Made by a program: the position numbers and the translations under genes. A model generated the notes under the pieces. The model saw only the letters and a program-made list of their open reading frames with translations. It had not been told where the DNA came from and searched no databases. From Cupriavidus necator (GTDB taxonomy: Bacteria; Pseudomonadota; Gammaproteobacteria; Burkholderiales; Burkholderiaceae), in NCBI GenBank assembly GCA_022041995.1, contig CP074381.1:3596001-3660000 (forward strand): 64,000 nucleotides of DNA, given 5' to 3'. This document shows, one piece after another, positions 11,561 through 42,344 of the stretch (its first letter is position 1; every line of letters starts with the position of its first letter).

Positions 11561-11637
11561 CGGGGTGTAGCTTAGCCTGGTAGAGCGCTACGTTCGGGAC
11601 GTAGAGGCCGGAGGTTCGAATCCTCTCACCCCGACCA
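11561..11637 (+). tRNA. tRNA-Pro (anticodon CGG), intact, integration target
   Basis: A 77-base cloverleaf. The acceptor stem CGGGGTG pairs with CACCCCG; the anticodon loop TTCGGGA gives CGG at positions 34-36; the T-loop is GGTTCGAATCC; CCA is encoded. The gene is complete at the left edge of the mobile element. Only its last 47 bases are repeated at the right edge, so the element integrated without breaking the tRNA. Confidence 0.95.
11591..11637. repeat. attL: 47-bp direct repeat, inside tRNA-Pro
   Basis: Identical to 41581-41627. It covers the anticodon stem-loop through the CCA end. The flanking bases differ on both sides (a versus g on the left, a versus g on the right), which fixes the length. 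Confidence 0.95.
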
Positions 11638-12475: not shown

Positions 12476-13639
12476 ATGGACTCACCGTTCAAGGGGGTTG
12501 CAGCGACCGCAGGCGAGCTGCTGAGGCCGCCGACCGGGCACGCCGCGTCGGCTCGACAGACAGCTCACATCACCGACAGCCGCGAATGGAGAGAGGGCTA
12601 CCGCCGCCACCTAATCGCCAGGTCGGTGCCGCCGCATCAGGCCGCCGACATGGCCGCGAAGGTGGCATTCCGGCCTGATCTGTACCCGCTTGGACACGGC
12701 GTACCGCTTCAACCGCCAGTTCAATCGGCGTCGATCATCAGGGTCAGACACCCAGTCGACACGACCGTCGCGTATCCCAAGCGCTCGGGCAAGTTGCTTG
12801 ACGCTGGGCACGAGATCGCCACCACGCCGCCGACTGGCAACGACATGGCATTCACCCACGCCGTACTCTGCCAAGTCGGCCTTCCACGAAGCAAGGTCGA
12901 AGGCCGCGAGTTCCATCGACAGTCGGGCGATATGTGGATCAACGTGCAAGCTGGGTGGCTTGATGAAGGGCGGGGACCGGTGGCCCAGCCCGTTCCCTAT
13001 GGCGCGATGCCACGCCTTGCGCTCGCCATGATTTCCACGCTCGCCAAACGGCACAAGACGCGCGAGATTCCGATAGGCGAGAGCGCAGCCCAGTTCCTCA
13101 AGCTCATGGGCATGGACGACCAGAAGAACCGCTACGTGAAGCTGCGTGAGCAGATGCACGCACTGGCAGCGTGTCGTCTTCAGATTGGCTACCGAGGCCG
13201 CACCTTCAGCGGTCAGCCCGTTGACCAGTTCGATGCGTGGATAGGGAACGCGGATACGGGGCAGAAGGCGCTATGGCCGGGCGTTCTGGTGCTTTCCCAG
13301 CACTATTACAACGAACTGGTTGAGCACGGCGTTCCTCTCGACAAGCGCGCGCTCGTTGCCCTCAAAGGTTCCGCGTTCGCGCTCGATGTCTATACATGGC
13401 TTGCGCATCGCCTGCATCGCATCGAAGGTCGGCCCGTCACGCTTCACTGGAAGCCGTTGAGGCAGCAATTCGCGCAGGAGTCACAAAGCAAGGACGCGGA
13501 TCGCGACTTCAAGAAGGCCTTTCTTCCGGCGCTGCGACAAGCGCTCGCGGTGTACCCAGAAGCGAAGGTGAAGCCGGTCAAGGGCGGCCTGCTGCTGATG
13601 GCCTCCCCGCCGCCGATTCCGTACAAAGGTGCAGCATGA
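12476..13639 (+). CDS. repA: Plasmid replication initiator RepA
   Basis: A 387-residue protein matching the plasmid-encoded RepA family in my memory. The recognisable core runs from about residue 120 (DMAFTHAVLCQVGLP) to 380 and includes KRHKTREIPIGESAAQFLKL and FALDVYTWLAHRLHRI. Such proteins bind iterons and open the origin. Matching G-rich iterons lie at 40222-40387; in the excised circle they sit about 3.7 kb upstream of repA across the attachment junction. A GAGGGTGAGG ribosome site precedes the ATG. Its presence in a chromosomal element implies a replicative stage. Confidence 0.85.
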   Translation: MDSPFKGVAATAGELLRPPTGHAASARQTAHITDSREWREGYRRHLIARSVPPHQAADMAAKVAFRPDLYPLGHGVPLQPPVQSASIIRVRHPVDTTVAYPKRSGKLLDAGHEIATTPPTGNDMAFTHAVLCQVGLPRSKVEGREFHRQSGDMWINVQAGWLDEGRGPVAQPVPYGAMPRLALAMISTLAKRHKTREIPIGESAAQFLKLMGMDDQKNRYVKLREQMHALAACRLQIGYRGRTFSGQPVDQFDAWIGNADTGQKALWPGVLVLSQHYYNELVEHGVPLDKRALVALKGSAFALDVYTWLAHRLHRIEGRPVTLHWKPLRQQFAQESQSKDADRDFKKAFLPALRQALAVYPEAKVKPVKGGLLLMASPPPIPYKGAA

Positions 13640-16047: not shown

Positions 16048-16084
16048 GCGTTTCAGCGTGCGGGTCAGGGCAAGGCCTCCAAAG

Positions 16085-16122
16085 TTCACCACATTGCACC
16101 ACTCTGGTGTAAAATGGTGCAA
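16085..16122 (+). promoter_or_regulatory. Four-half-site operator over the promoter of the defence operon
   Basis: Half-sites TTCACCA (16085-16091), TTGCACCA (16094-16101), TGGTGTAA (16105-16112) and TGGTGCAA (16115-16122). The two on each side repeat directly at 9-10 bases and face each other about a centre near 16103. A -10 box TAAAAT lies at 16110-16115 inside the operator. Such arrays are typical for ribbon-helix-helix repressors, and one is encoded 16 bases downstream. Autoregulation is inferred. Confidence 0.7.
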
Positions 16123-16138
16123 TTGAACTGAGGCAGGC

Positions 16139-16339
16139 ATGGCACCCATGGCACTCTCCACGAAACAGCATCCTTCGGCGAAAGAAGGAACCCGTGCGTC
16201 AGTCACGTTCCCTGCCGATCTCTATGCCGAGCTTGAGCGGATCGCGGAAGAAAAGAAGGTTTCTGTCGCCTGGGTCGTTCGCGATGCAGTCGAAAAATAT
16301 GTTGAGGCGCAGTACCCCCTCTTTCGCAGCGCGCAGTGA
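16139..16339 (+). CDS. Ribbon-helix-helix (CopG/Arc-type) regulator
   Basis: A 66-residue protein. RASVTFPADLYAELERIAEE (beta strand and helix A) followed by KKVSVAWVVRDAVEKYVE (helix B) is a classical RHH fold. RHH proteins bind as dimers to short repeats such as those just upstream. It is the first gene of the methyltransferase-McrB operon, the place of a controller protein, and probably represses until the methyltransferase has protected the host. There is no toxin partner beside it. The start could also be the second ATG (16148). Confidence 0.8.
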   Translation: MAPMALSTKQHPSAKEGTRASVTFPADLYAELERIAEEKKVSVAWVVRDAVEKYVEAQYPLFRSAQ

Positions 16340-16345
16340 AAGCCC

Positions 16346-17884
16346 ATGCCAAGCAAAACAAGAGGAAGCGGTGACATCGTGAAAACCAATACCCGTGCTA
16401 TCAAGCAAAAGATTGCTCGCCTGAAGGCTGGCGGAAATCCGCGTGTGCTTGACCTTTTTGCCGGCTGCGGCGGCATTTCGCTCGGCTTCTCTGCTGCCGG
16501 ATTTACCATCGCGGGCGCTGTTGAATTCGACCCGGATGCGGCGGCCTCACATGGGCGGAACTTCCACGGCGGACACGCAGCGCATTCGCAGGCACGCGAC
16601 ATCACACAGACGAGCCCGGATCAGCTTGCGAAGGACCTTGAGGTAGGTTCGACCGCTGAGGCGTTCGACGTGCTCGTCGGTGGCCCGCCCTGCCAGGCGT
16701 TCGCCCGCGTTGGGCGGCCCAAGCTGCGCGAGGTGGACAACCACGCGGAGGCCTTCAAGCATGACCCGCGCGCCCAGCTCTATATCGACTACCTGCGCTA
16801 CGTGGAAGCCTTTGCGCCCCTCGCCGTCGTGGTCGAAAACGTCCCCGACGTGCTAAACCATGGCGGGCAGAACATCGCTGAAGAAATCGCTGAAGTTCTG
16901 GAGAGCAAGGGGTATGTCTGCCGCTACACGCTGCTGAACGCCGCTTTCTATGGGGTGCCGCAGATGCGCGAGCGGATGATCCTCATTGCCTACCGGCGCG
17001 AGATCGCCGCCGCCGTGACATTTCCTGAGCCGACGCACTTCATCGACCTGCCGCCGGGATATGAAGGCACCCGCTCGGTCGCACTCAAGTTCCTCGACAA
17101 CGAGATAGCCGACGACGCGCACCACTACATCCACGCGCCGAAGGCGGCACGCTCTCTGCCACCCGCCATCACTGCGGAAGATGCGCTCGGCGATCTGCCG
17201 ACCATCGACGCGCGCGAGCTGCTGAAGAGCGGTGAACTGCGTCGCGGCGCCCGCCGCTTTGACGTGCCCATGCCGTATGGCCAGCAGCCTCATACGTCCT
17301 ACGCTCGGCTCATGCGGACATGGCCGGGCTTCGAGGCGCCGGAGGCGCTGACCGATCACGTCATCCGCTATCTGCCGCGCGACTACCCTCTGTTCGCCCG
17401 CATGAACCCAGGCGATCAATATCCCCAGGCGTACGAACACGCCATGGCGATGTTCGAGCAGCACCTCGCCGACTTGGCGAAGCAAGGCGTCAAGGTCAAA
17501 CCCGGCTCGCAGAAGTACGAGGACATCAAGGCTTCGATTGTGCCGCCCTACGACGTGGGCAAGTTCCCGAACAAATGGCGCAAGATGTGGCGCGATCAGC
17601 CAGCGCGCACGCTGATGGCGCACCTTGGGAAGGACAGCTACAGCCACATTCACTACGACAGCAAGCAGGCCCGCACGATCTCCGTGCGCGAGGCCGCCCG
17701 TCTTCATTCGTTCCCCGATGGCTTCGCCTTCTGCGGCACGATGAACCCAGCCTTCCGGCAGATCGGCAATGCCGTCCCGCCGCTGCTGGCGAAGGCCGTC
17801 GCGACCCAGATCATGAAGACACTCAAACAATCGGACAGGGAGACGTCGGATGAACCTCGTCGAGCGGCAGCAGCGGTTTCTTGA
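16346..17884 (+). CDS. DNA (cytosine-5)-methyltransferase
   Basis: A 512-residue C5 methyltransferase. Motif I is LDLFAGCGG (residues 35-43, SAM binding), motif IV is GGPPCQAFA with catalytic Cys116, motif VI is VVENVPD (163-169), motif VIII QMRERMILIAYR, and motif X IGNAVPPLLAKAVA near the C-terminus. The long region between VIII and X holds the target-recognition domain; the target is unknown. A GTG at 16379 with GAGGAAG upstream is an alternative start, since the ATG at 16346 lacks a ribosome site. The end overlaps the McrB-like gene by 35 bases. It protects host DNA from the nuclease encoded downstream. Confidence 0.95.
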   Translation: MPSKTRGSGDIVKTNTRAIKQKIARLKAGGNPRVLDLFAGCGGISLGFSAAGFTIAGAVEFDPDAAASHGRNFHGGHAAHSQARDITQTSPDQLAKDLEVGSTAEAFDVLVGGPPCQAFARVGRPKLREVDNHAEAFKHDPRAQLYIDYLRYVEAFAPLAVVVENVPDVLNHGGQNIAEEIAEVLESKGYVCRYTLLNAAFYGVPQMRERMILIAYRREIAAAVTFPEPTHFIDLPPGYEGTRSVALKFLDNEIADDAHHYIHAPKAARSLPPAITAEDALGDLPTIDARELLKSGELRRGARRFDVPMPYGQQPHTSYARLMRTWPGFEAPEALTDHVIRYLPRDYPLFARMNPGDQYPQAYEHAMAMFEQHLADLAKQGVKVKPGSQKYEDIKASIVPPYDVGKFPNKWRKMWRDQPARTLMAHLGKDSYSHIHYDSKQARTISVREAARLHSFPDGFAFCGTMNPAFRQIGNAVPPLLAKAVATQIMKTLKQSDRETSDEPRRAAAAVS

Positions 17885-19526
17885 CGCTGCGCAGAAGCAT
17901 TTCAAGACCTCGAAGGCAGTCCGCCCGCGCGAGCTGTTCGGCGTTTCCAACAGCGCCAAGATCGTCGAAGGCGGCATCCAGCTTGGCGTCGTCAATCTGG
18001 ACAACGTCAAGGACGACACCGAAGCGCTGATCTTCGGCTGCGTCATGCGCTTCCCGCCTGAGGATGAGGTTTACTTCGCGGTCCTGGTGCGTAAGGACAA
18101 GGCCAGCTTCCTGGCACGCCTCGCCGAGATGAAGAAGCTCGGTGCGGCCGCGAAGGCAGCCGGCGCCGAACCTGCCGACCTGCTGTCCGAAGGTACCGAC
18201 GAAGAAGCCCCCGAGGCCCCTGGCGCAACCATCAAGTACAGCGCTCGCAACAACCTCGTTCCGATCTACCTCGCCCGCGACGGGCGGCTCTGGCTGCGCA
18301 ACGCCAAGTTCTGGGACAGCCTTGCCTTCGACATGACGCCCTTTGGCCCGGCGACAGAGCCGGACGAGATCGTCGTCGCGCTCTACCCGCCTACCGCCTC
18401 GGCGCGGCGCAGCTTGCTGGCGCGCGAATTCATCGGCTGGCTTGGCAGTCTGGTCGGCTCGCAGAAGATTCACGAGCTGCCGGTCTGGACCGACACCGCC
18501 ACGCTGAGCCCGGAAATGCGTCGCATGCCGGCAAGCATTCCGGTCGGCGACATCGAAGCTGCCGTCAAGGCGCTCGGCGGGCATTACCCCAACGGCGAGG
18601 TGAAGCGTTTCCACGCGGCGCTAAATTTCCTGCCGCACAAACACTTCGTGATCCTGTCCGGCCTGTCCGGAACGGGCAAGACGCAGCTCGCGCTGAAATA
18701 CGCCAGGGCTGTGCATGGGCTCACCTCGAACACCGACGACGATCCGCTGATCTTCGAATGCCCGGTGCGGCCGGAGTGGACGGACCCGACCGGACTGACC
18801 GGCTATTTCGACGTGCTGACGAACCGCTACGTCGTGCCGACATTCCTGGAGGCCGTGCTGGTGGCGACGGCGCACCGCGAGTCGCCGGTCTTCGTCATCC
18901 TCGACGAGATGAACCTAGCGCGAGTCGAGTACTACCTGTCCGACGTGCTGTCCTGCATGGAGACCCAGGGCCGCCTGCAGCTGCACTCGAACAGCGTGCC
19001 GCTCGAAGGCACGACGGGGGCCAGCATCCGCGCCGAGCTGCCGCTGCCTGCCAACCTGTTCATCATCGGCACCATCAACGTCGATGAAACGACGAATCCG
19101 GTCAGCGACAAAGTCCTCGACCGCGCATCGGTGATCGACATGTCGGCGGTCGATGTGCCGGGCTTCCTAGCTTCGCTCGAAGGCCGCTATCCCGAGCTGA
19201 AGGACGCGCGCGCCGCGTCCGAAGCAAGGCTGACCGAAATCCATGGCCTGATGCAGCAGTACGGGCTCGGCTTCGGCTACCGGCTGATCGAAGAGTTCGT
19301 GCGCTATCACGCCTTCGATGCGGCCAGCCTCAAGAGCCCGGCCGCCGATGTCACCGACCAGCTGCTCGTGCAAAAGGTACTGGTGAAGCTGCGCGGCGCC
19401 GAACGGCAGCGCCCGCTGCTGACCAGCCTCGACAAGGCCTGCGAGGGCCTGCCGCGTGCGAAGGCCTTCGTGCAGAAGCTGCTGGCCGATCTCGATGATT
19501 TCGGCTCCTTCCAGGCGATGCGGTGA
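17850..19526 (+). CDS. McrB-like AAA+ NTPase (restriction motor)
   Basis: A 558-residue protein. Residues 1-230 form an unfamiliar N-terminal domain, probably for DNA or modification recognition. The AAA+ module has Walker A GLSGTGKT (271-278), Walker B VFVILDEMN (347-355) and LFIIGTINVDETT (403-415), which occupies the place of the McrB nucleotide-specificity motif. McrB proteins form hexamers that translocate DNA and drive a partner nuclease, here the next gene. The start lies inside the methyltransferase gene with AGGGAG upstream. Whether it uses GTP like McrB or ATP cannot be seen. McrB-like subunits in methyltransferase-linked systems such as LlaJI or BsuMI are the closest comparison. 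Confidence 0.88.
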   Translation: MNLVERQQRFLDAAQKHFKTSKAVRPRELFGVSNSAKIVEGGIQLGVVNLDNVKDDTEALIFGCVMRFPPEDEVYFAVLVRKDKASFLARLAEMKKLGAAAKAAGAEPADLLSEGTDEEAPEAPGATIKYSARNNLVPIYLARDGRLWLRNAKFWDSLAFDMTPFGPATEPDEIVVALYPPTASARRSLLAREFIGWLGSLVGSQKIHELPVWTDTATLSPEMRRMPASIPVGDIEAAVKALGGHYPNGEVKRFHAALNFLPHKHFVILSGLSGTGKTQLALKYARAVHGLTSNTDDDPLIFECPVRPEWTDPTGLTGYFDVLTNRYVVPTFLEAVLVATAHRESPVFVILDEMNLARVEYYLSDVLSCMETQGRLQLHSNSVPLEGTTGASIRAELPLPANLFIIGTINVDETTNPVSDKVLDRASVIDMSAVDVPGFLASLEGRYPELKDARAASEARLTEIHGLMQQYGLGFGYRLIEEFVRYHAFDAASLKSPAADVTDQLLVQKVLVKLRGAERQRPLLTSLDKACEGLPRAKAFVQKLLADLDDFGSFQAMR

Positions 19527-19529
19527 ACC

Positions 19530-21185
19530 GTGACGGCGCTCTACATCCAGGCCGAGAGCGGCGGACCGGCATGGCAGGTCTGGCCCATGCCGGATGTAGT
19601 ACCGCCCGGCGCGGTGCGGGAAGGGGCGTCCTACCTCTTTGAACTGCGCGACAGTGACGACGCGCTTTCGGCCGACCTGTTGATCGACGATGTGCTGGTC
19701 GAGGCGCTGCGGTCGCGCGAGCCGCGCAAGGCCCGCTGGCGCTGGCAGCCTGGTTTTCATGCCGGCATGGTGGAGGCTGTGCTGCGCGTGCCGGGCATAG
19801 GAACCCGGCGCTTCGAGGTTACGACGGACCCCGACCTGCGCAAGCTGACGCGCGACGACTTCGACGCGATGGTGCGCGAAGTTCTTGAAGACACGTTCGC
19901 CCTGTTCTCGTTGAGCGCATTCCGCAAGGGCATCGCGCGCCAGCCTGGCAACCGCCCACCACCGCTCGCCCGCCTTGAATTCCTGCGGTCGCGGGCCGGT
20001 GCAATCGTGGCGGCAGTCGAAGCCATCGCCCGTGCGCCGCGGCACTTTCTGCGTGCCGAAGACATCACGGTGCCGGCGCACCGTGCCACACGCGCGACCG
20101 GGCCCGAGATCATCAAGTCCTTCAGGTCGGGCGCGGTCCGCACCGAGACCGTCACCCCGTCACGGCTGCCGACGGCGCTCAAAGGGCGTCTGCCCGCGCA
20201 GATCACGGTGCGGCAGCGCCGGAACAGCGTAGACATCCCGGAACATCGGCAGATCAAAGCCTGCCTGCGCTCCTGGTCTGCGTGGCTCGGCGGCGTCGCC
20301 GAGGTGCTGGCCAAAGCAGGTGGCACAAACGATGCAGAGGTCGTCAGCACAGCTGGCAGTTGGGCCGTGCGCGCGCGGCGTATCGCGCGACTCCTGAACG
20401 ATGCCGCGTCGGCCGGCTTCATGACCGAAGTCGGTGAGGGGCCAGCACTCCTGCGCATGTCCTCGCTATTCCGCAACGACCCGGTCTATCAGCGCTTCTA
20501 CCGGCTCTGGCAAGACATGAATCTCGGGCTCGCCGCGCTGTTCGGCGACTTCCTGCAGATGCCACTGGCCCGGACCTATGAGCTGTACGAGCTGTGGTGC
20601 TTTCTGCGCCTGCTGCGCGCGGCCGTTGAGGAATATGGCGCCTCAGATGTTGACCTGAGTAACCTGTTCCTTAGCGAAACGGGTGGCGGCGTGACGATCG
20701 CGGCCGGCGCCATCACGGTGCCGATCGGCGGCGACCGCGTGCTGTGCTTTCAGCGGCAGTACCGCGAATACTGGGTGGAGGACAGCCGCGAAGGCAGCTT
20801 CAGCCGGACGATGGTGCCCGATGTCGTGCTGGCGGGCAGCGACCTGGGCGGCCCGGAGCGGCGCGTCATCGTGCTCGATGCCAAGTACCGGATCAATGAC
20901 GGCCTCAATGACGCCCTGAATTCGATCCACACCTACCGCGACGCACTCGTGCAGGAGGTGACAAGCGGTCGGACCGAAGGGATCGTCACTGCCGCCTATC
21001 TGCTGACCCCACATGTGCCGGCGGGCCTGCAGGCGGATTTCAAAGCCACACCCGTGCCAGGCCGGCTCTTCCATCCGGAGTACCGCGAGAAATTCCACTT
21101 CGGCGCTGTGACGCTTCGTCCCGGCATGTCGGGCGAAGAGCTGCGCAGCTGTCTGCGCACCATCGTTGCAGACGCTGGGGCGTGA
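19530..21185 (+). CDS. DUF2357-type protein with PD-(D/E)XK nuclease site (McrC-like role)
   Basis: A 551-residue protein starting at GTG, 3 bases after the McrB-like gene. Residues 1-260 match my memory of the DUF2357 N-terminal domain. Residues 345-470 hold the nuclease fold: RTYELYELWCFLRL (helix with a conserved Glu), MVPDVV with Asp431, and VIVLDAKYRI with Asp450 and Lys452, which together make the D-(x)n-DxK catalytic triad. It is the presumed cutting partner of the McrB-like motor, corresponding to McrC. The GTG start and tight spacing indicate coupled translation. Confidence 0.85.
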   Translation: MTALYIQAESGGPAWQVWPMPDVVPPGAVREGASYLFELRDSDDALSADLLIDDVLVEALRSREPRKARWRWQPGFHAGMVEAVLRVPGIGTRRFEVTTDPDLRKLTRDDFDAMVREVLEDTFALFSLSAFRKGIARQPGNRPPPLARLEFLRSRAGAIVAAVEAIARAPRHFLRAEDITVPAHRATRATGPEIIKSFRSGAVRTETVTPSRLPTALKGRLPAQITVRQRRNSVDIPEHRQIKACLRSWSAWLGGVAEVLAKAGGTNDAEVVSTAGSWAVRARRIARLLNDAASAGFMTEVGEGPALLRMSSLFRNDPVYQRFYRLWQDMNLGLAALFGDFLQMPLARTYELYELWCFLRLLRAAVEEYGASDVDLSNLFLSETGGGVTIAAGAITVPIGGDRVLCFQRQYREYWVEDSREGSFSRTMVPDVVLAGSDLGGPERRVIVLDAKYRINDGLNDALNSIHTYRDALVQEVTSGRTEGIVTAAYLLTPHVPAGLQADFKATPVPGRLFHPEYREKFHFGAVTLRPGMSGEELRSCLRTIVADAGA

Positions 21186-21677
21186 ATGGCCGACGTGCTG
21201 ACACCCGAGCAGCGCAAGCTGAACATGAGCCGCATCCGGGGCAAGGACACAAAGCCCGAGATGCTGATCCGTCGCGGCCTGCACGCACGGGGGCTGCGCT
21301 ATCGGTTGCATGACCGGTCGCTGCCCGGCCGGCCCGATCTGGTGTTTCCAAAGTACCGCACTGCTGTTTTCATTCATGGCTGCTTCTGGCACGCGCACGG
21401 CTGCGCGCTGTCAAAGCTGCCGGCAACACGACAAGACTTCTGGCAGGCCAAGTTAGGGGCCAACGCCGCACGCGACCAAAAGGCGGTCGATGCGCTGCGG
21501 GCCGGCGGTTGGCGCGTGCTGGTGATCTGGGAATGCGCGCTGCGCGGGGCAGCGCGACAGAATGAATCGGTTGTGCTTGAACGGGCCGCCGGCTTCATTG
21601 AAGGTACCGACATGGGCCTTCTCGAAATCGCAGCCGTGGGCGCCGTCAACGCTGGATCGGAGGCGCACGATGCATGA
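21186..21677 (+). CDS. vsr: Very short patch repair endonuclease Vsr
   Basis: A 163-residue Vsr family endonuclease. Asp51 in GRPDLVF is the catalytic residue. HGCFWHAHGC (64-73) supplies His64, Cys66, His69, His71 and Cys73, matching the active-site and zinc positions of the E. coli enzyme as I remember it. The N-terminal MSRIRGKDTKPE is also canonical. It nicks at T:G mismatches arising from deamination of 5-methylcytosine and so pairs with the C5 methyltransferase of this operon. It follows the nuclease gene with no gap and overlaps the next gene by 8 bases. Confidence 0.95.
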   Translation: MADVLTPEQRKLNMSRIRGKDTKPEMLIRRGLHARGLRYRLHDRSLPGRPDLVFPKYRTAVFIHGCFWHAHGCALSKLPATRQDFWQAKLGANAARDQKAVDALRAGGWRVLVIWECALRGAARQNESVVLERAAGFIEGTDMGLLEIAAVGAVNAGSEAHDA

Positions 21678-22182
21678 ACTTTCAGGCTTGCTCGGCACCG
21701 CCGCAGCGGGGGTGGCACCTGAATATTTCCTGCTGCCGATTCATGGTGCGGACCCGGTCTACCGCGAGCGCGTCTATTGCTACGAGCTTTATCACCAGAT
21801 GCGGCGGCTGTGGCCGGCGGACAGCCACTATCGACTCAATGGTGAGATCGACAAACGGTCGCACCCGTACTTTGCCGACGGCGCGGCCCCGAAGCCGGAC
21901 TTTCTGGTGCATGAGCCCGGCACGGGGAACAATCATGCGATCTTCGAGGTGAAATCCGCTTTGGGGTCCGAGGACGGAACGATCAAGGATTTCAAGACGC
22001 TTCTGCACTTCAGGCATCAGCTCGGATACGTGCGTGCGATCTACCTGATCTACGGCGCCTCGCCCGCCGAAGCGCTCGCAAAGTTGCAACGCCTCGGTCT
22101 GATGGACCAGCTGGCTGCCGTTGAACTGTGGGTGCACCCGGAAGCGGGCATGCCGGCGGAACGCGTCGCACCGGCCGGTTGA
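21670..22182 (+). CDS. Small PD-(D/E)XK-like protein of unknown function
   Basis: A 170-residue protein starting at the ATG overlapping the end of vsr. KPDFLVHEPGTGNNHAIFEVK (first 20 shown as far as EV; Asp77, Glu93, Lys95) fits a PD-(D/E)XK core, preceded by a helix RVYCYELYHQMRRLW with a conserved-looking Glu39. This is the size of a bare nuclease domain. I do not recognise the family. It may be a second nuclease, a specificity factor for the McrB-like complex, or a partner of the following ATPase, to which it is joined by a 31-base gap. Confidence 0.6.
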   Translation: MHELSGLLGTAAAGVAPEYFLLPIHGADPVYRERVYCYELYHQMRRLWPADSHYRLNGEIDKRSHPYFADGAAPKPDFLVHEPGTGNNHAIFEVKSALGSEDGTIKDFKTLLHFRHQLGYVRAIYLIYGASPAEALAKLQRLGLMDQLAAVELWVHPEAGMPAERVAPAG

Positions 22183-22213
22183 AGAGCGACAGCAAGACAG
22201 GGAAGGGACAAAA

Positions 22214-24838
22214 ATGCAAAAGCCCACCATGCCGCAAAAGACGGTCTTGGAAACGATTCTGGAATGGTCACAGGGTCGCCCGCTCTGGCAGCGTGACGCC
22301 TTACGGCGCATCATCGGGCAGGGCCGCGTGACCCAAGAGGATGTGGCCGAGCTGGTCGAGCTGTGCAAGGTGGGCCACGGTGCCCCTGCAGGCCAGCTCG
22401 TCGCCGTGCCGCTGGCAAAGGAGCATCTTCCCGCTACACCGGGCGAAGGTGCCGCGCTTACGTTGGTATCGGTGGCCGGTGTGCGCGGCGCAAACAACCT
22501 CGCGCCCGGTCAGACGCTGAATTTCGAGCCGAAGGGCATCACGATCGTCTATGGCGATAACGGCGCGGGCAAGTCGGGCTATGCGCGCATCCTGAAGCGT
22601 GCCTGCCGTGCGCGCCACGCCGGGAAGATCGAGGCCAACGTCTACGACAACCAGGCCCCGACGGTCGCAAGCGCTGACATGACCTACGGCGTCGGTGGTG
22701 TTGTGCAGCCGGTCGAGCGCTGGCAGGACAGCCCCCAGCCGCATGCCGTTCTTTCGGCGGCCAGTGTCTTCGACAGCGACTGTGCGGCCGTGCACATCCG
22801 CGAGAAGAACGAAGTCGCCTTCCGTCCGTTTGGCCTCGATGTACCGGACGAACTGGCTGCCGCCTGTCAGGCTGTCAAGGACGCTCTGGCGGCCGAGCAA
22901 AAGCAGCTTGAGAAAGCACGCAGTCCGATCTTCGCGACGCCGACCTGGAAGGCAACCACGGCTGTGGGCAAGACCCTCGCCGCGCTGAACGCCACTACCG
23001 ACGCAAAGAAGGTTGAAGCCTTGGCAACCCTTACGGCTGAAGAGGCAGCCCGGCTTGAGCGCCTGCGGGAAGACTTGTCGAAGAATCCGACGAAGGCGGC
23101 AGCTGAGCAAACCGTCAAGGCCGACAACGTCAAGCGGCTCATGGAAGCGGCGAACGGTGTCGCAGCCAAGACCACCGACCAAGCACTGCTTTCAGTCTTC
23201 ACAGCGGCTAAAGAAGCTCTGCTGAAGCGCGAGGCCGCGCGTCTGGCTGCCGACAAGGCGTTTGCCGGTGAGCCGCTGGCCGGCGTTGGTGGCGAAGTGT
23301 GGCGAGCGCTGTGGGACAGCGCCCGCCGTTACTCGACCGAAGTCGCATATCCCGGACAGCCGTTTCCACCGTCAGCCGGCGATGCGCATTGCATGCTCTG
23401 CCAGCAGCCGCTGGGAGATGAGGCACGGACGCGCATGACCCGCTTCGATGACTTCATCAGGAAGGATACGGAACGGCTGGCAGGCGAGGCCGAACGGGCC
23501 GCGCTGACTGCACGTCAGGCCGTGGCAGCCGGGACCATCGGCACGCGGGCCGTCAAGGCCAGTCTGGACGAACTTGGAATTCAGAACCCAGCGTTGCAAA
23601 AGCAGACACGCCGCTTCATCGCAGCAGCAAGACTGCGGCGTCACGCTCTTCTGAAGGGGCTAGGCGGCGACGAGCTGACGCTTCCACCCGTCCCGCCGTC
23701 ACCAGCCGCCGACCTCGGCCAGCTCGAAACCACGCTTCGCGACTACGCCGCCGAGCTGCGCAAGTCGGCGGGTGCGGACGAACGAAAAAAGCTCGAGGCG
23801 GACTTTGCCGAGCTGAGCGACCGCGCTCTGCTTGCCGGCATGCTTCCGGTCGTCACAGATGAACTCCAGCGGTTGAAGACCATTCGCTTCCTGACCGAGT
23901 GCGCGGGCGATACGGCGACAAACACCATCACGAAGATGGGCAACGATATCGCCGACACCGCGATCACGCCGAAGCTGCGAGACAGGTTTCAGGAGGAGAT
24001 CACCAAGCTGGCCGCTGAAAAGGTCAGGGTCGAAATCGTGCGCTCGGGCGGTAAGTACGGGTCACCGCAATATCAGGTGCGCCTCTTCGCCAACCCGGAC
24101 GCAAAGGTCCATGAGGTTTTAAGCGAGGGCGAGAAGACCTGCGTTGCACTCGCAGCGTTCTTGACCGAACTCGCTACCGCCGCGCACCGCTCGGCTCTGG
24201 TCTTCGATGACCCCGTGTCATCGCTGGATCACCGCTGGCGCGGGCAAGTGGCCAAGCGACTTGTTGAAGAAGCTGGGAACCGCCAAGTCATCGTCTTCAC
24301 GCACGACTTGGTGTTCGTCAACGATCTGAACGATCTCGCGACGAAGGCGGGCAGGCCGCTCCGTCTCTCAACGCTGAGCCGTGGTGCCGCAGGCGCCGGC
24401 ATGGTCTCTGATGGCTTGCCATGGAAGGCCCAGGGAGTCGAGGACCGCATCGACAAGCTTGAGAAGGCGGCTCGGGCAGCCAAGGTGCTCCACGACAACA
24501 ATCAGGACGACGAATACGCCATCGAAGTGGCGAAGCTCTACAACGCACTTCGTGCGTCCTGGGAGCGCGGCCTGGAGGACATCGCCTTCTTCCGGGTTGT
24601 GCAGAGACATCGTGACTACATCAATGCCAAAGACCTCAAGAAGGTGAGCGTTCTCACAGAGGCCGACTGTGACGCATTCGCAGTTGGATACAAGAAGTGT
24701 TGCGACATTGTCGATGCGCACGACCCTTCGGCTGGCCGGAATGCTTCCCCACCCCCACCTGCGGATGTACTGCTCGACCTTCAGGCCCTCAAGGACTGGG
24801 CTGCTTCGTTACGAGCGCGGCAGAAACAGGTAGCCTAA
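22214..24838 (+). CDS. Zinc-hook AAA_13 ATPase, RloC/PrrC-like candidate anticodon nuclease
   Basis: An 874-residue SMC-like ABC ATPase from the ATG at 22214 (ribosome site GGGAAGGG). Walker A is GDNGAGKS (114-121), the signature is LSEGEKT (636-642), Walker B ALVFDDPVSSLD (661-672) and the switch His697 (VIVFTHD). Coiled coils at about 215-600 are broken by CMLC at 393-396, a zinc-hook-like CxxC. The C-terminal part has Arg780 and Glu784 (LRASWE) and His836 (DAHDP), a possible R-x3-E...H set like that of PrrC/RloC nucleases, though the spacing to His is longer than I recall for PrrC. RloC and PrrC cut tRNA anticodon loops when host restriction is inhibited. The nuclease function is inferred. 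Confidence 0.7.
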   Translation: MQKPTMPQKTVLETILEWSQGRPLWQRDALRRIIGQGRVTQEDVAELVELCKVGHGAPAGQLVAVPLAKEHLPATPGEGAALTLVSVAGVRGANNLAPGQTLNFEPKGITIVYGDNGAGKSGYARILKRACRARHAGKIEANVYDNQAPTVASADMTYGVGGVVQPVERWQDSPQPHAVLSAASVFDSDCAAVHIREKNEVAFRPFGLDVPDELAAACQAVKDALAAEQKQLEKARSPIFATPTWKATTAVGKTLAALNATTDAKKVEALATLTAEEAARLERLREDLSKNPTKAAAEQTVKADNVKRLMEAANGVAAKTTDQALLSVFTAAKEALLKREAARLAADKAFAGEPLAGVGGEVWRALWDSARRYSTEVAYPGQPFPPSAGDAHCMLCQQPLGDEARTRMTRFDDFIRKDTERLAGEAERAALTARQAVAAGTIGTRAVKASLDELGIQNPALQKQTRRFIAAARLRRHALLKGLGGDELTLPPVPPSPAADLGQLETTLRDYAAELRKSAGADERKKLEADFAELSDRALLAGMLPVVTDELQRLKTIRFLTECAGDTATNTITKMGNDIADTAITPKLRDRFQEEITKLAAEKVRVEIVRSGGKYGSPQYQVRLFANPDAKVHEVLSEGEKTCVALAAFLTELATAAHRSALVFDDPVSSLDHRWRGQVAKRLVEEAGNRQVIVFTHDLVFVNDLNDLATKAGRPLRLSTLSRGAAGAGMVSDGLPWKAQGVEDRIDKLEKAARAAKVLHDNNQDDEYAIEVAKLYNALRASWERGLEDIAFFRVVQRHRDYINAKDLKKVSVLTEADCDAFAVGYKKCCDIVDAHDPSAGRNASPPPPADVLLDLQALKDWAASLRARQKQVA

Positions 24839-24842
24839 GGGC

Positions 24843-25307
24843 CTATGCCTGCCCGCCTCGCTCATTCGCTGCGATCAATTGAACGCGAGTCGCGGCAAGC
24901 ACAGTGGCTCGGACCTCCTCGGCGTAGACGATGACCTGCGCGCCGTCATTTGCTTCGACCCGGACCATGTCGCGGTTGGACGCCAAAAACTCTGTCCGCA
25001 GCGACCGTCCGATGTCGGCTAACGCAACGGAGTCGATCTCGCCTTGCAGATCATCCTGCTTACCCACCCGGCGGTACTCAGGCGGGATATAGACCAGTTC
25101 AAGGCCCGAATCGGACAGGAGGCCCTGTAGACATACCACTCCGTGCGCTCGGGTCAAGATCGACTGCAAGGCAGCAAAGGTGCTTGCAATTCGTGCAAGG
25201 CTGGAATTCGGGTGACAACGAGCAGCGATCCAGCGCGCACCGACGGCAAGCTCAATGGCCGAAAACCCAACTGGCAGTTGAGGTGTGAGTGTTTCAGCGC
25301 GCGCCAT
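24843..25307 (-). CDS. Hypothetical protein, third gene of the mobilization operon
   Basis: A 154-residue protein. Its ATG overlaps the relaxase stop codon by 1 base (TGATG), so it is translationally coupled to the relaxase. It has no signal peptide, membrane segment or motif I can name; residues 65-130 appear to be a mixed alpha/beta domain. It converges with the zinc-hook ATPase gene with a 4-base gap and marks the right end of the defence block. A role in mobilization is inferred only from coupling. Confidence 0.6.
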   Translation of the reverse strand: MARAETLTPQLPVGFSAIELAVGARWIAARCHPNSSLARIASTFAALQSILTRAHGVVCLQGLLSDSGLELVYIPPEYRRVGKQDDLQGEIDSVALADIGRSLRTEFLASNRDMVRVEANDGAQVIVYAEEVRATVLAATRVQLIAANERGGQA

Positions 25308-28000
25308 CAAACACTGATCTCCGGCCCTTCGTTGACCGAGTCTTGCCCCTCAAGTCGGAGGAAATGGTCGCGGTAGCGCTCAATCTTGGCCAGCGCCCGC
25401 GAGCCGTCCGGGCCAAAGGCGTAGCGCGCTGTCCGCTGGGCATAGTCATGCCAGTTCCGGCCCTCGTCTGCGGTGCGAATCGACGGCGCGCAGGCCTCAA
25501 GGACGGTGGCTATCTCATCCTGTCCGTGCCCGGTGGCCCGCAGCCGCACGGCGATCATGGAGTCCACGCGCGACAGGTCGATCCCGTCGCCCTTGTGGCG
25601 CGCAGCGATGTCGCGGTAGTGAGCCTCGTAGGCATGAGCGGGGGCCGCAGTGCGCGCCGCAGCAGGGGTAGCAGACCTCCGCACTTGTGCCACCCGGACT
25701 TCCTCGTCGAGCTGGCGAGCGACGACACAGCTCAGTGCGTATGCCTTGTCGCAGTTGCAGGCCACGGCGTGCCGCAGCTCAACCACCGGAAAGGTGCCAT
25801 CAGGTCGCTGGTACTTCGGCGCAGGCGCACCCGGCTCCCACTTCCGGTTCTCGAAGCCCGGCGCGCGGTGTGGATGGATGCAGGCTTGCAGCTTCGGGTC
25901 GCCATATTGCTTGTTGAGGGCGACGATGAGGCGATTGCCTACGTCCTGATCGTCCGCACGACCGAGCTTGGGGACGTTCAGGACGGCTTGCAACTTGCCC
26001 GGACTGGACTCCATCACCACGGCAGGCCGGTAGCCATCGGCGAGCATCCGGCGCAGGCTGGTATCGCTCAGGTCATCGACTAGTACATGGTGCATCCGCT
26101 CGCTGCGCGGGGTGTAGTACAGGTTCTCGCCGCGTGCATGGAGGCGCAGCAGCTCTCGCATCCGTCGCTCCACCACCGTTGCCTCCACGCCGTCCTTGCC
26201 GCCCAAGACAAAGGCCTTGCGATGGTCGGCTGACATCTTGATCGCCGTCAGCGTGTACCTCTCCGCGCCGATTGCTTCGTGGTACTGGGCGAAGAGCCTC
26301 ATTTGCGGTGCGCGCATTGCTTCCTCCCGTGCTGCCCGGCGTGCTTCCTTGGCCGCCTCGACTTGTTCTTGCAATTCAGGGTTGGCGATGCGGATGCCAT
26401 GCTCCACAGCAAGCCGAACGCATGTGGCCTTGTAGGCGTCCGAGCCGTACACGCTGACCTTGCCCCACTTGGCGGCCCCAAGCTGTAGGGCGGCCAAGGT
26501 CGCAGCTTCGTCGTGCGCCTCCTGAACGTCGATGCGACGGCCGTGGTCGGTGAATGACACTTCCTCAGACACACCCCCCGCCGCCCCTTGGCGGCGGTAT
26601 TCCACCGCTCCGCAGACGATCTCGCCAGTGAAGGCACGAAGGTCGCGCGGGAGGGCTTCGTTGTCACCATCGCCTTCGAGGCGCAGCGGCTCGTGCCGGT
26701 GGTAGCGGTAGTCGCCAGCGTCCTCGGGGCTAAACCACTTGGCCAGCCAGTCGTGGTACTCCGGCCATGCGTCTCGGGCATCACGCAGCGCCTTGGCTTC
26801 CCGGCGATGCCGCTCCCTGATTTCCAGTTCGACCTTCTTGGCCTCGGCAGCGGTGACGCTGCGCATGGCGTTCAACAGCTCGCCCTTCCCCTTCCACTGC
26901 TGGGCAGCGATGGCCGCGCTGCGCTCCGCCTTCTGAACACGAAGCTGGGCCATCTCGCGCTCGTAGCGCTCTTTCTCTTCGCGCTGCTTTCGCGCGAGGT
27001 GCGCCCGATGATCCGTCGCGGCGGCGATGTAGTCATCCCAGCCGGGGAGGTCTGCTCGCAGCGGCTCTGGCTTGCGCTCGACCGCCACGACAGCGGAGGC
27101 GGCAGGTTCGAACGCTCCAAGCCGCTTGGTGAGCTTGCCAAGACTGCACCAGTGGCCCGCCGTGCTGGCCTTGATGGGTTGATCGCCGACGTAGATGTGC
27201 GCCCCTCCACCGGCCTTCACGTAGCGCATACCGCGCTCGGCAAGGCCGTGGTGCAGCTCTGCCCAGCTCGCTGCCGCCCCGATCAGTTCGCCTGCCTCTT
27301 CAATCCCGATCCGCGCTGCGCTCTTCTGACCCGTGCGGCTTTCCATGTCGCCCGCACGAGTCGGCACGCTGGGCGCGCTGTCCAGCTTCCCGACGCGCGC
27401 TACGGTGCCATCTTCCAAAACGACATAGCGCCCGTTTGGCTCACGCTGCCACCCTTGCCGATGCTCAACGATTGCTACCGTTCGATGTGCCGCCTCGATG
27501 TCCCAGCCGTTCGCAGGTTTGACCACCTTGCAGGTGTCCGGGTGAACCTTGTTAATCGCTACATGCAGGTGGATGTTGTCGGTGTCCTGATGCAACGCAG
27601 CGATGACTTGGTGCTTCTCAAGCCCAAGCTGCTCAAGGAACACATCGAGCAGTTCTTCCACCTGCTCAGGGGTCGGCTGCTCGCCCTCATGCCAGCTCGA
27701 AACCCAGTGCTGAATCGGGTGCTTCGATTTTTTGCACTCCATCGCCAGCGCGACCATCTCGGCCTGCTGGCCCTTGAACGTGCTGGTGTTGAAGCCGCGC
27801 GTCGTCAGGTACAGCAGCTTTTCCGGCTGCTCACCTTTGCCGCCAAGGATGACGCCATCGTCGTCGATGTGATACCCGAGCCGGGTCAGGCGAGCCGCGT
27901 CATCCGGCACCGCGACGTAATCCGTCAGGTCACTGATGTTGGTGGCTTTGGACTTGCGCCCGGCCTTGTCCTGATCGACCGGGATTTTCTTGAGGATCAT
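25307..28000 (-). CDS. MOB-P type relaxase fused to LPD7 and primase-like domains
   Basis: An 897-residue protein. The relaxase domain is N-terminal: Tyr28 in LTDYVA is the likely nicking residue, and motif III is HQDTDNIHLH (137-146, metal-binding histidines). Around residues 430-550 is a region like the LPD7 domain of large conjugative proteins. Residues about 575-780 resemble the RepB-type primase fold (HHVLVDDLS, and a histidine-rich patch near IHPHRAPGFENRKW). It would cut at oriT, stay bound to the 5' end, and prime complementary synthesis in the recipient. Its start overlaps the MobC-like stop by 4 bases. Confidence 0.85.
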   Translation of the reverse strand: MILKKIPVDQDKAGRKSKATNISDLTDYVAVPDDAARLTRLGYHIDDDGVILGGKGEQPEKLLYLTTRGFNTSTFKGQQAEMVALAMECKKSKHPIQHWVSSWHEGEQPTPEQVEELLDVFLEQLGLEKHQVIAALHQDTDNIHLHVAINKVHPDTCKVVKPANGWDIEAAHRTVAIVEHRQGWQREPNGRYVVLEDGTVARVGKLDSAPSVPTRAGDMESRTGQKSAARIGIEEAGELIGAAASWAELHHGLAERGMRYVKAGGGAHIYVGDQPIKASTAGHWCSLGKLTKRLGAFEPAASAVVAVERKPEPLRADLPGWDDYIAAATDHRAHLARKQREEKERYEREMAQLRVQKAERSAAIAAQQWKGKGELLNAMRSVTAAEAKKVELEIRERHRREAKALRDARDAWPEYHDWLAKWFSPEDAGDYRYHRHEPLRLEGDGDNEALPRDLRAFTGEIVCGAVEYRRQGAAGGVSEEVSFTDHGRRIDVQEAHDEAATLAALQLGAAKWGKVSVYGSDAYKATCVRLAVEHGIRIANPELQEQVEAAKEARRAAREEAMRAPQMRLFAQYHEAIGAERYTLTAIKMSADHRKAFVLGGKDGVEATVVERRMRELLRLHARGENLYYTPRSERMHHVLVDDLSDTSLRRMLADGYRPAVVMESSPGKLQAVLNVPKLGRADDQDVGNRLIVALNKQYGDPKLQACIHPHRAPGFENRKWEPGAPAPKYQRPDGTFPVVELRHAVACNCDKAYALSCVVARQLDEEVRVAQVRRSATPAAARTAAPAHAYEAHYRDIAARHKGDGIDLSRVDSMIAVRLRATGHGQDEIATVLEACAPSIRTADEGRNWHDYAQRTARYAFGPDGSRALAKIERYRDHFLRLEGQDSVNEGPEISV

Positions 28001-40387: not shown

Positions 40388-41505
40388 CTACCCCAGCTTC
40401 TTTGCAAGGTCTTCGGCACGCGGGTGGTAGTAGCGCTTGAGCATCCTCAAGTCGCGATGCCCGGTCACGGCGGAAAGCTCCAAGACGTTGGAAAGCTTCT
40501 CGGCAAGGCGCGAGGCGGCCTCGTGACGTGTGTCGTGGAAATGGACATCGGCAAGGAACCCGGCAAGTGGCTTGCGCTTCGCCGCCTTGCAGTCTGCCTT
40601 GTACTGCTCCTGCGCGCGCTCAATGGCCCGCGTGAAACCCTTGCGCAGCGCCAAGGCAGTGGTCGCAAAGACCTTGCCTGTGCGGCGCTCTTTTGCGTCA
40701 TCCTCGACCTCAGCATCCTCGTCGGCGTCAGGGTCTGGGAGCGCGGCCAGGATTGCGACAGCCTTGGTCGAAAGCGGGACCGTCCGGGCATCCCCGTTCT
40801 TCGTGTCAGGCAAGTGCGCGGTCTGCCGCTTCAAGTCCACGTTCTCCCACTCCAGCGCAAGCAGCTCGCCGCGCCGCATTGCCGTCTCAATCGCGAGCTG
40901 GACGAGTGGCAGCAGCCACGGGTTGCGAGCCCCCTTGCTGAACGTCCCGTCAGGCAGCCGCTCACCACCCGTCAGGGCCGCTAGCAAATAGGCCTCTTCT
41001 TCGGCCGAAAACCGGCGATCTCGCGCCCTTGCCTTCTCAGGTCGCTTCACGTAGGGAATTGGGTTCTCGACATGAATGCCCCACTCGCGGCGAGCATGGT
41101 TGAGCACGGCGGAGATCACGTCAATCTCCCGATTGACCGTCGCCCCACTGACCTCCTTCAAGCGGCGGTCCCGCCAGCTAGCCACGGCGGCGCTGGTGAT
41201 CGCCGACATCTTGAGCTTGGGAAGCGAAGCGTCTTTCAAGATGACATCGATCTTGATCGACTCGATGTCGGCCGACTTTTTGGCGGGCGTGACCTCCTTC
41301 TGATACCGTTTGAGCACCTCAGCCAGCGTGTTCTTGTCTGCCTCCCGGCGATCCACAAAACCAGACGTCTCCAACTCCCGCTCGACGGCCCGCACCCACT
41401 TCTCGGCGTCCTCCTTGTACGAGAAGGTGCGGGACTGCGTGGGGAACCCCCGCGCCTTACCTTCGCCTGCCACTGCAACTCGCCCCGCTTCGTGATGGTT
41501 CCCAT
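40388..41505 (-). CDS. int: Tyrosine recombinase (integrase) of the element, apparent N-terminal frameshift
   Basis: The C-terminal catalytic domain is intact: Arg in AMRRGELLALEW, His-x-x-Arg in HDTRHEAASRL, His in TGHRDLRMLKRYY and Tyr in the same block. The family N-terminus MGTITKRGELQWQAKVRR is read from 41505, but continuing to PTQSRTFSYKEDAEKW needs one extra base in the G5 run at 41447-41451 (C5 on the given strand). Otherwise the frame can only be extended upstream through non-family sequence to 41572. It catalyses integration at the tRNA-Pro end. Either miscount of a homopolymer or an inactivating lesion that fixes the element. Confidence 0.85.
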
Positions 41506-41511
41506 GTCCCG

Positions 41512-41530
41512 TGTCCCAAATTTGTCCCAA
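41512..41530. promoter_or_regulatory. Candidate integrase arm-type sites, right end
   Basis: TGTCCCAA at 41512-41519 and TTGTCCCAA at 41522-41530, again 11 bases apart, lying just upstream of the integrase start and 50 bases inside attR. They match the pair at 11732-11751. Confidence 0.55.
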
Positions 41531-41580
41531 CAAATCAGGGATCACCTTAAACCACCAGTAAAATAGCCGCAAGGGCTAAG

Positions 41581-41627
41581 CGTTCGGGACGTAGAGGCCG
41601 GAGGTTCGAATCCTCTCACCCCGACCA
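41581..41627. repeat. attR: 47-bp direct repeat of the tRNA-Pro 3' end
   Basis: Exact copy of 11591-11637, running from the anticodon loop region to CCA. No 5' half of a tRNA precedes it, so it is an attachment site and not a second tRNA gene. Confidence 0.95.
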
Positions 41628-41700: not shown

Positions 41701-42021
41701 TCATCCCTTGATCGCCTTGCGCTGAAGCTTGAATGCCTTCAGGTCGGCCGCGGAAAACAGCTGGCTACGCCCCACTTCCGCATGGGGTGCCAGCTTGCCG
41801 TCGCGCACCAGCCGCCGGAGGGTGGCAATTGAAACTTCGAGGTATTCGGCCGCCTCCGCGGCGGTGAAGTCTGCTTCAGCGAGATGGCCAAAGACCTCCT
41901 CGTGCGAGAAGTTCTCGTCCTTGAAAGCCTGTTCGCCCACCAGCATGAAGAACTTGACGCGCTCCTGCGCGGGCATCTTGCTGACGGCCTTCATCAGGTC
42001 TTCTGCGGTCATGATGGTCAT
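41701..42021 (-). CDS. Helix-turn-helix antitoxin
   Basis: A 106-residue protein. The C-terminal half (FTAAEAAEYLEVSIATLRRLVRDGKL... FSAADLKAF) is an excisionase/MerR-type helix-turn-helix. It overlaps the stop of the toxin-like gene upstream by 4 bases, the usual toxin-first order for HigBA-like pairs. It lies outside attR, in the chromosome side, close to the element. Confidence 0.75.
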   Translation of the reverse strand: MTIMTAEDLMKAVSKMPAQERVKFFMLVGEQAFKDENFSHEEVFGHLAEADFTAAEAAEYLEVSIATLRRLVRDGKLAPHAEVGRSQLFSAADLKAFKLQRKAIKG

Positions 42022-42344
42022 CCCTTTCTCTCTGCCCTCAGGTACTGCTTGAGCTCTTCGTAGAAGTTCTCATGCGAGCCCACCTTGTAAAATTCGATCC
42101 ACAGCATTTCGAGATCTACGCCTGCCGCCTGCTCCCCGGGTCGCGGTGGCCGGTAGGCGATCAGGCATTCCTGCCGGTTGAACTTGAATTTGTGGACCCG
42201 GATCCCGGCCAGATCGCCAACCTTGGCCTCCCCAACGCCAGGATCTGCGCAAACCACCTCCACTTCATCCTCGATCGCCAGCTGCAACGGCTTGTGTGCC
42301 TTCTTGACGAACTGCACGAAGGGCTTCTTGTAAATTGGCTTCAT
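42018..42344 (-). CDS. RelE/ParE-family toxin
   Basis: A 108-residue protein with the compact RelE/ParE pattern: FVKKAHKPLQLAIEDEVEVV at the N-terminus, IRVHKFKFNRQECLIAYR strands in the middle, and the C-terminal VGSHENFYEELKQYL that I recall from this toxin group. It probably cleaves ribosome-bound mRNA or blocks a similar step. Its promoter must lie in the AT-rich stretch 42345-42400. Confidence 0.75.
   Translation of the reverse strand: MKPIYKKPFVQFVKKAHKPLQLAIEDEVEVVCADPGVGEAKVGDLAGIRVHKFKFNRQECLIAYRPPRPGEQAAGVDLEMLWIEFYKVGSHENFYEELKQYLRAERKG

What the first reader, a model, noticed from the sequence alone, without database searches (positions are those of the whole stretch)
16085..24838. 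Compact defence block joining a C5 methyltransferase, McrB-like motor, DUF2357 nuclease, Vsr, a small PD-(D/E)XK protein and a zinc-hook RloC/PrrC-like ATPase
Seven genes in one direction with overlaps or gaps of mostly under 35 bases, behind a single regulated promoter. Parts resemble known methyltransferase-linked McrB-type restriction (LlaJI/BsuMI-like) and known anticodon-nuclease guards of type I systems. The combination suggests one unit: restriction, repair of deaminated methylcytosine, and suicide if restriction is blocked. I know of PrrC/RloC with type I enzymes but not with an McrB-type motor, so the pairing may be new.
Basis: partly seen in the sequence, partly recalled or inferred. 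Interest (0 to 1): 0.78.

Follow-up and report, generated by a model that had tools for sequence, protein, structure and literature searches.

The report
Mobile restriction operon with RloC tail
A mobile DNA element in a bacterium carries a known kind of virus-cutting enzyme set, and behind it, read in the same direction, sit two separately acquired genes, one of which looks like a known enzyme that stops the cell by cutting transfer RNA; relatives carry other defence genes in that same place, so the two parts look interchangeable and not one fixed machine.

The parts
16085..16123 (.). Candidate RHH operator: TGGTG/CACCA inverted repeat before the first gene
   Evidence: Inverted repeat ATTGCACCA/TGGTGCAAT, arms 16093-16101 and 16115-16123; pattern only here in the window; core seen in the 9 relatives aligned with it, L041 the weakest
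16139..16339 (+). Ribbon-helix-helix (CopG-like) regulator, 66 aa
   Evidence: PF07878 5.4e-9, PF01402 1.3e-6; homologues at 75-93% identity before the MTase in nine close relatives
16346..17884 (+). C5-cytosine DNA methyltransferase, 512 aa
   Evidence: PF00145 2.7e-58; PPCQ, ENV and GNAV motifs
17850..19526 (+). McrB-like AAA+ motor/specificity subunit, 558 aa, NxD signature (N410-V-D412)
   Evidence: NCBIfam PRK11331 2.5e-4 (below cut-off), PADLOC PDC-M26A 2.7e-41; GTIN[VI]DETTN in 35 of 40 relatives by pattern
19530..21185 (+). McrC-like nuclease: DUF2357 + PD-(D/E)XK_7, 551 aa
   Evidence: PF09823 6.5e-15, PF04411 5.6e-14; DAK motif
21186..21677 (+). Vsr very-short-patch repair endonuclease, 163 aa
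   Evidence: PF03852 2.6e-34; TIGR00632 1.3e-46
21670..22182 (+). Tail gene 1: small PD-(D/E)XK-like protein, 170 aa
   Evidence: PADLOC PD-Lambda-3_A 8.7e-7; D77-x15-E93-x-K95, invariant in the window and two close homologues
22214..24838 (+). Tail gene 2: RloC-type zinc-hook ABC ATPase/anticodon nuclease, 874 aa
   Evidence: PADLOC PDC-S06 1.7e-199; CxxC hook and R780-x3-E784-x51-H836 residues in 37 of 37 aligned sequences, window included
11591..11637 (+). Left attachment repeat, 3' end of tRNA-Pro(CGG)
   Evidence: 47-bp exact direct repeat of 41581-41627; tRNA 11561-11637
40388..41572 (-). Tyrosine integrase of the carrying element
   Evidence: PF00589 4.1e-23
41581..41627 (+). Right attachment repeat
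   Evidence: Direct repeat
12476..13639 (+). Plasmid RepA-like replication protein of the element
   Evidence: PF04796 3.1e-20
25307..28000 (-). Relaxase-RepB primase fusion of the element
   Evidence: PF03432 4.5e-25, PF16793 5.8e-40

Best explanation
A mobile R-M operon with an interchangeable tail. Core: the methyltransferase marks host cytosines; the McrB-like subunit recognises the unmarked site and drives the DUF2357 nuclease to cut incoming DNA (as LlaJI and PcaRCI do); Vsr repairs T:G mismatches left by 5-methylcytosine deamination; the RHH protein represses from the upstream operator. Tail: the small PD-(D/E)XK-like protein and RloC were joined behind vsr separately and are probably transcribed with the core. 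RloC would be a second line: when phage-made DNA breaks (or failed restriction) are sensed by its Rad50-like ATPase, it cuts tRNA anticodon loops and stops translation. Shown here: gene content, order, RloC motifs, separability, variable slot, element boundaries. Inferred: co-transcription, restriction activity and site, tRNA target, trigger, any functional tie between core and tail.
Against: No transcript, protein or phenotype data. RloC behind this core is a single case. Of the 38 relatives, six have an opposite-strand ORF of 100 aa or more within 150 bp of vsr and 21 (L034 included) have no such neighbour on either strand, so the slot is not always used. Most RloC loci show no R-M match with my references, and L128 (49% identity) lies behind sugar-metabolism genes. 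The RloC C-terminal model is poor (pLDDT 63.5) and found no nuclease match.
Confidence: 0.6

Rival explanations
1. Co-located but independent systems: an LlaJI/PcaRCI-type R-M operon, and a stand-alone RloC plus a stray small nuclease, sharing only the mobile element and perhaps a transcript.
For: 0 of 40 core relatives carry the tail genes; the 52% RloC relative L032 has no R-M neighbour in its annotation or by reference search; an R-M methyltransferase match within 6 kb in only 8 of 37 RloC loci; the element is a cargo carrier.
Against: Overlap of 8 bases with vsr and a 31-base gap; defence genes recur in the same slot in relatives; RloC sits inside other R-M operons.
Confidence: 0.3
2. One reading: one seven-gene unit that restricts, repairs deamination and kills the cell if restriction is blocked, selected as a whole.
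For: Tight co-directional spacing behind one operator; analogy with PrrC and EcoprrI; RloC somewhere in the genome in 4 of 36 core carriers against 10 of 279 (p 0.06).
Against: No second instance among 40 core relatives, 37 RloC loci or the other homologues of the small nuclease.
Confidence: 0.05
3. The small PD-(D/E)XK protein is a dedicated partner or silencer of RloC, so the tail is a two-gene system.
For: Adjacent with a 31-base gap; in B. elkanii pBel61 a damaged homologue follows another AAA_13 (PDC-S06) ATPase.
Against: HMMs of the small protein find none in the other RloC loci, including the 82% relative L090; its other homologues follow a UvrD-type helicase gene (L027, L028) or an unknown gene (L026).
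Confidence: 0.05

Closest known systems
PcaRCI R-M system of Pectobacterium carotovorum (PMC8989522; passages read)
   Same: 5mC methyltransferase + AAA+ GTPase subunit + DUF2357 nuclease; mobile region; restricts plasmids and phages
   Different: No Vsr, RHH operator, small nuclease or RloC tail in the passages read; no direct sequence comparison was made here
LlaJI of Lactococcus lactis (PMC1459862; outline and abstract read; passage in PMC12707154)
   Same: McrB-like GTP-binding specificity subunit and separate PD-(D/E)XK cutting subunit with 5mC methylation; plasmid-borne
   Different: Two methyltransferases; B3 DNA-binding domain in its McrB-like subunit (review passage), whereas the window's N-terminal part has no Pfam match; no tail described in the abstract
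RloC anticodon nuclease (PMC2610378; section 5 and passages read)
   Same: ABC ATPase split by a zinc-hook insert, 658-897 aa, C-terminal Arg-X3-Glu-X36-52-His; here 874 aa and X51
   Different: Published linkage is to type I or III R-M loci (8 of 72); here it follows an McrB-type operon
MTase-associated NxD McrB branch (CoCoNuTs paper, PMC11090510; passages read)
   Same: NxD signature and DNA methyltransferase association
   Different: That paper leaves these systems for a later publication; the two-component genes and added McrC domains it reports for many of them were not seen in this block

Membership tests
RloC | Arg-X3-Glu-X36-52-His in the C-terminal region | tested here: met
   R780-x3-E784-x51-H836; the three residues in 37 of 37 aligned sequences; criterion
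RloC | CX2C zinc hook inside the ABC ATPase | tested here: met
   C393-M-L-C396 between Walker A (114-121) and the LSEGE signature (636); both cysteines 37 of 37
RloC | Length 658-897 aa | tested here: met
   874 aa
RloC | tRNA anticodon cleavage and wobble nucleotide excision | not testable with these tools
   Needs an assay
RloC | C-terminal HEPN-type fold | tested here: inconclusive
   All-helical single-sequence model, pLDDT 63.5, no significant PDB match
RloC | Direct sequence match to a characterised RloC | not tested
   No characterised RloC sequence was at hand; none is among the PDB matches
LlaJI/PcaRCI-type R-M | 5mC methyltransferase + McrB-like motor + separate DUF2357/PD-(D/E)XK nuclease | tested here: met
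   together in 40 of 40 relatives, some cut or in broken frame
LlaJI/PcaRCI-type R-M | Cuts unmethylated DNA, protected by its own methyltransferase | not testable with these tools
   Needs an assay
Canonical type IV McrBC | NxxD GTPase signature and no cognate methyltransferase | tested here: not met
   NxD at 410-412 and in 35 of 40 relatives by pattern; a neighbouring methyltransferase in 40 of 40
PD-Lambda-3 system | A-subunit homologue | tested here: inconclusive
   PADLOC 8.7e-7 over residues 36-139 only
PD-Lambda-3 system | Any second subunit and the published phenotype | not tested
   No definition of the full system was obtained; the gene was not filed as a member

The most novel reading that the evidence does not exclude
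This clade of C5-methyltransferase/NxD-McrB/DUF2357/Vsr operons has a dedicated docking slot behind vsr for swappable second-line defence modules (Gabija, MORC-like pairs, small nucleases, ThsB, GmrSD, RloC), co-expressed with and perhaps gated by the restriction enzyme, so that restriction failure triggers whichever back-up is plugged in.
Probability: 0.25. Interest if true: 0.65.

Novelty: new variant of a known kind. Interest (0 to 1): 0.42.

Why it matters
It gives a concrete case for asking whether a restriction operon can take any back-up effector at its 3' end. Whether RloC answers to a linked restriction enzyme, as PrrC does, was raised in 2008 (PMC2610378, passages read); an RloC behind an McrB-type operon on a small mobile element, with relatives that carry other modules in the same place, is a natural comparison set for testing that.

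Tried and rejected
Single evolved unit: rejected on co-occurrence. Small nuclease (P5) as an obligate RloC partner: not supported. P5 and the small nuclease behind vsr in L045 as one family: no alignment. AlphaFold models: P5 pLDDT 45.9, uninformative; RloC C-terminus pLDDT 63.5, Foldseek without significant match. Viral and phage collections: no RloC relative; P5 in one viral contig and in no phage record. Sequence search of solved structures gave only three ATPase-part matches for RloC and nothing usable for P5. My recalled RloC triad numbering was wrong; the paper gives R692/E696/H737.

Full report
What is there. The block 16085-24838 holds seven + strand ORFs with gaps of 6, -35, 3, 0, -8 and 31 bases. 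HMM scans give a ribbon-helix-helix protein, a C5 methyltransferase, an McrB-like AAA+ protein, a DUF2357 + PD-(D/E)XK nuclease, Vsr, a small protein without Pfam match (weak PADLOC PD-Lambda-3_A) and an AAA_13 protein matching PADLOC PDC-S06 nearly end to end. The point 16085 is where a symmetrical operator begins; its core is seen before the RHH gene in the nine relatives aligned, L041 being the weakest. A sigma-70 scan found nothing.

Where it lies. A 47-bp exact direct repeat joins the 3' end of tRNA-Pro(CGG) at 11591-11637 with 41581-41627, next to a tyrosine integrase; between lie RepA, a relaxase-primase, a ParA-like protein and KfrA. The block is therefore cargo of an integrated, probably mobilizable element of about 30 kb. 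The genome is 9.6 Mb in 10 contigs. Its group is not told; the closest core relatives are mostly Burkholderiales (names), so any family name would be an inference.

The core is a conserved unit that ends at vsr. A scan of one genome per species (84,980 by the tool's description) with an McrB alignment gave 36 loci, and 4 plasmid loci were added. In these 40 the methyltransferase, McrB and DUF2357 genes are all seen (L058 cut by the contig ends, L051 and L056 in broken frame, the methyltransferase divergent in L034 and L060), and Vsr in 39; the small nuclease and RloC in none. 38 of the 40 hold at least 2.3 kb behind vsr. DNA alignments with nine close relatives begin at 16083-16203 and end at 21541-21649, that is inside or at the end of vsr. 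McrB carries an NxD signature (GTIN[VI]DETTN in 35 of 40 by pattern; the other five were not examined), which fits the NxD branch of the McrB tree in the CoCoNuTs paper, whose methyltransferase-associated members that paper leaves for later (passages read). The functional analogues are LlaJI and PcaRCI, which cut unmethylated DNA although their enzyme resembles McrBC (passages, and outline with abstract).

The last gene is RloC. The 2008 definition is an ABC ATPase split by a CX2C zinc hook, 658-897 aa, with Arg-X3-Glu-X36-52-His (PMC2610378 section 5). The window protein has 874 aa, C393-x-x-C396, and R780-x3-E784-x51-H836; in an alignment of 37 sequences (window and 36 others, best local identities 27-82%) both cysteines and the three triad residues are invariant. 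Activity was not tested, no characterised RloC sequence was compared, and the C-terminal structure model was too poor to confirm a HEPN fold.

But RloC does plug into R-M operons. From gene order and Pfam: L094 has HsdR, unknown, RloC, HsdM; L129 HsdR, HsdM, RloC; L092 RloC, type III Mod, unknown, Res; L135 Mod, Res, RloC; L093 an Eco57I-like methyltransferase, unknown, RloC; L130 an SNF2/NOV_C helicase overlapping RloC. A methyltransferase reference lies within 6 kb in 8 of 37 RloC loci, or 6 of 37 when a locus's own references are left out, against 0 of 20 chromosome stretches and 0 of 40 core flanks (p 0.002). The other RloC loci showed no such match, and L128 (49% identity) lies behind glycosyl- and carbamoyltransferase genes. 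Published linkage was 8 of 72. Linkage of RloC with R-M is thus known; with an McrB-type operon I found it once here and not in six library searches.

The place behind vsr is variable. Among the 38 relatives with sequence, co-directional genes of at least 100 aa starting within 50 bases are: GajA+GajB (L039, L042), a MORC-like HATPase plus an unknown protein (L040, L055), and a small nuclease of PADLOC mREase_II type (L045, L053, L073); within 150 bases also GajA+GajB (L051), a PDC-S46 ATPase in broken frame (L056), GmrSD (L062) and ThsB (L064) (L042 by 86-91% identity to L039). L034's overlapping ORF was dropped because its record annotates no gene there. Tail modules stack: L055 carries the L040 pair (93% and 78%) followed by a GajA-like gene 66% identical to L039's. 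Against this, six relatives have an opposite-strand ORF of 100 aa or more within 150 bases and 21 have no such neighbour, so co-direction overall is 11 against 6 (binomial p 0.33), while within 50 bases it is 7 against 0 (p 0.016; small numbers, some loci related).

How it most likely works. Core: modification, motor-driven restriction, mismatch repair, RHH control. Tail: a small nuclease of unknown target and RloC, which stops translation by tRNA cleavage when DNA breaks or failed restriction are sensed; double-strand breaks are the reported trigger of A. baylyi RloC (review passage). Only the anatomy and the separability are shown; the rest is inference from RloC, PrrC, LlaJI and PcaRCI.

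Noticed in passing
11591-11637 and 41581-41627: 47-bp exact direct repeats at tRNA-Pro mark an integrative element of about 30 kb with RepA, relaxase-primase, ParA-like and KfrA genes and an integrase.
   Followed up: partly
41701-42344 (-): ParE-like toxin (PF15781) and HTH protein pair lies just outside the right repeat.
   Followed up: no
L055:13804-19186: Tail behind vsr stacks a MORC-like pair and a GajA/OLD-like gene seen separately in L040 and L039.
   Followed up: partly
L045:13800-14324, L053:13805-14377, L073:13812-14312, L070:14065 (-): A recurring small nuclease (PADLOC mREase_II; no Pfam in the three scanned) sits next to vsr in four core loci, once on the opposite strand.
   Followed up: partly
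[not shown]
   Followed up: partly
L029:6941-7266: Damaged copy of the small PD-(D/E)XK gene follows a 698-aa AAA_13 ATPase of another PDC-S06 subfamily on pBel61.
   Followed up: no
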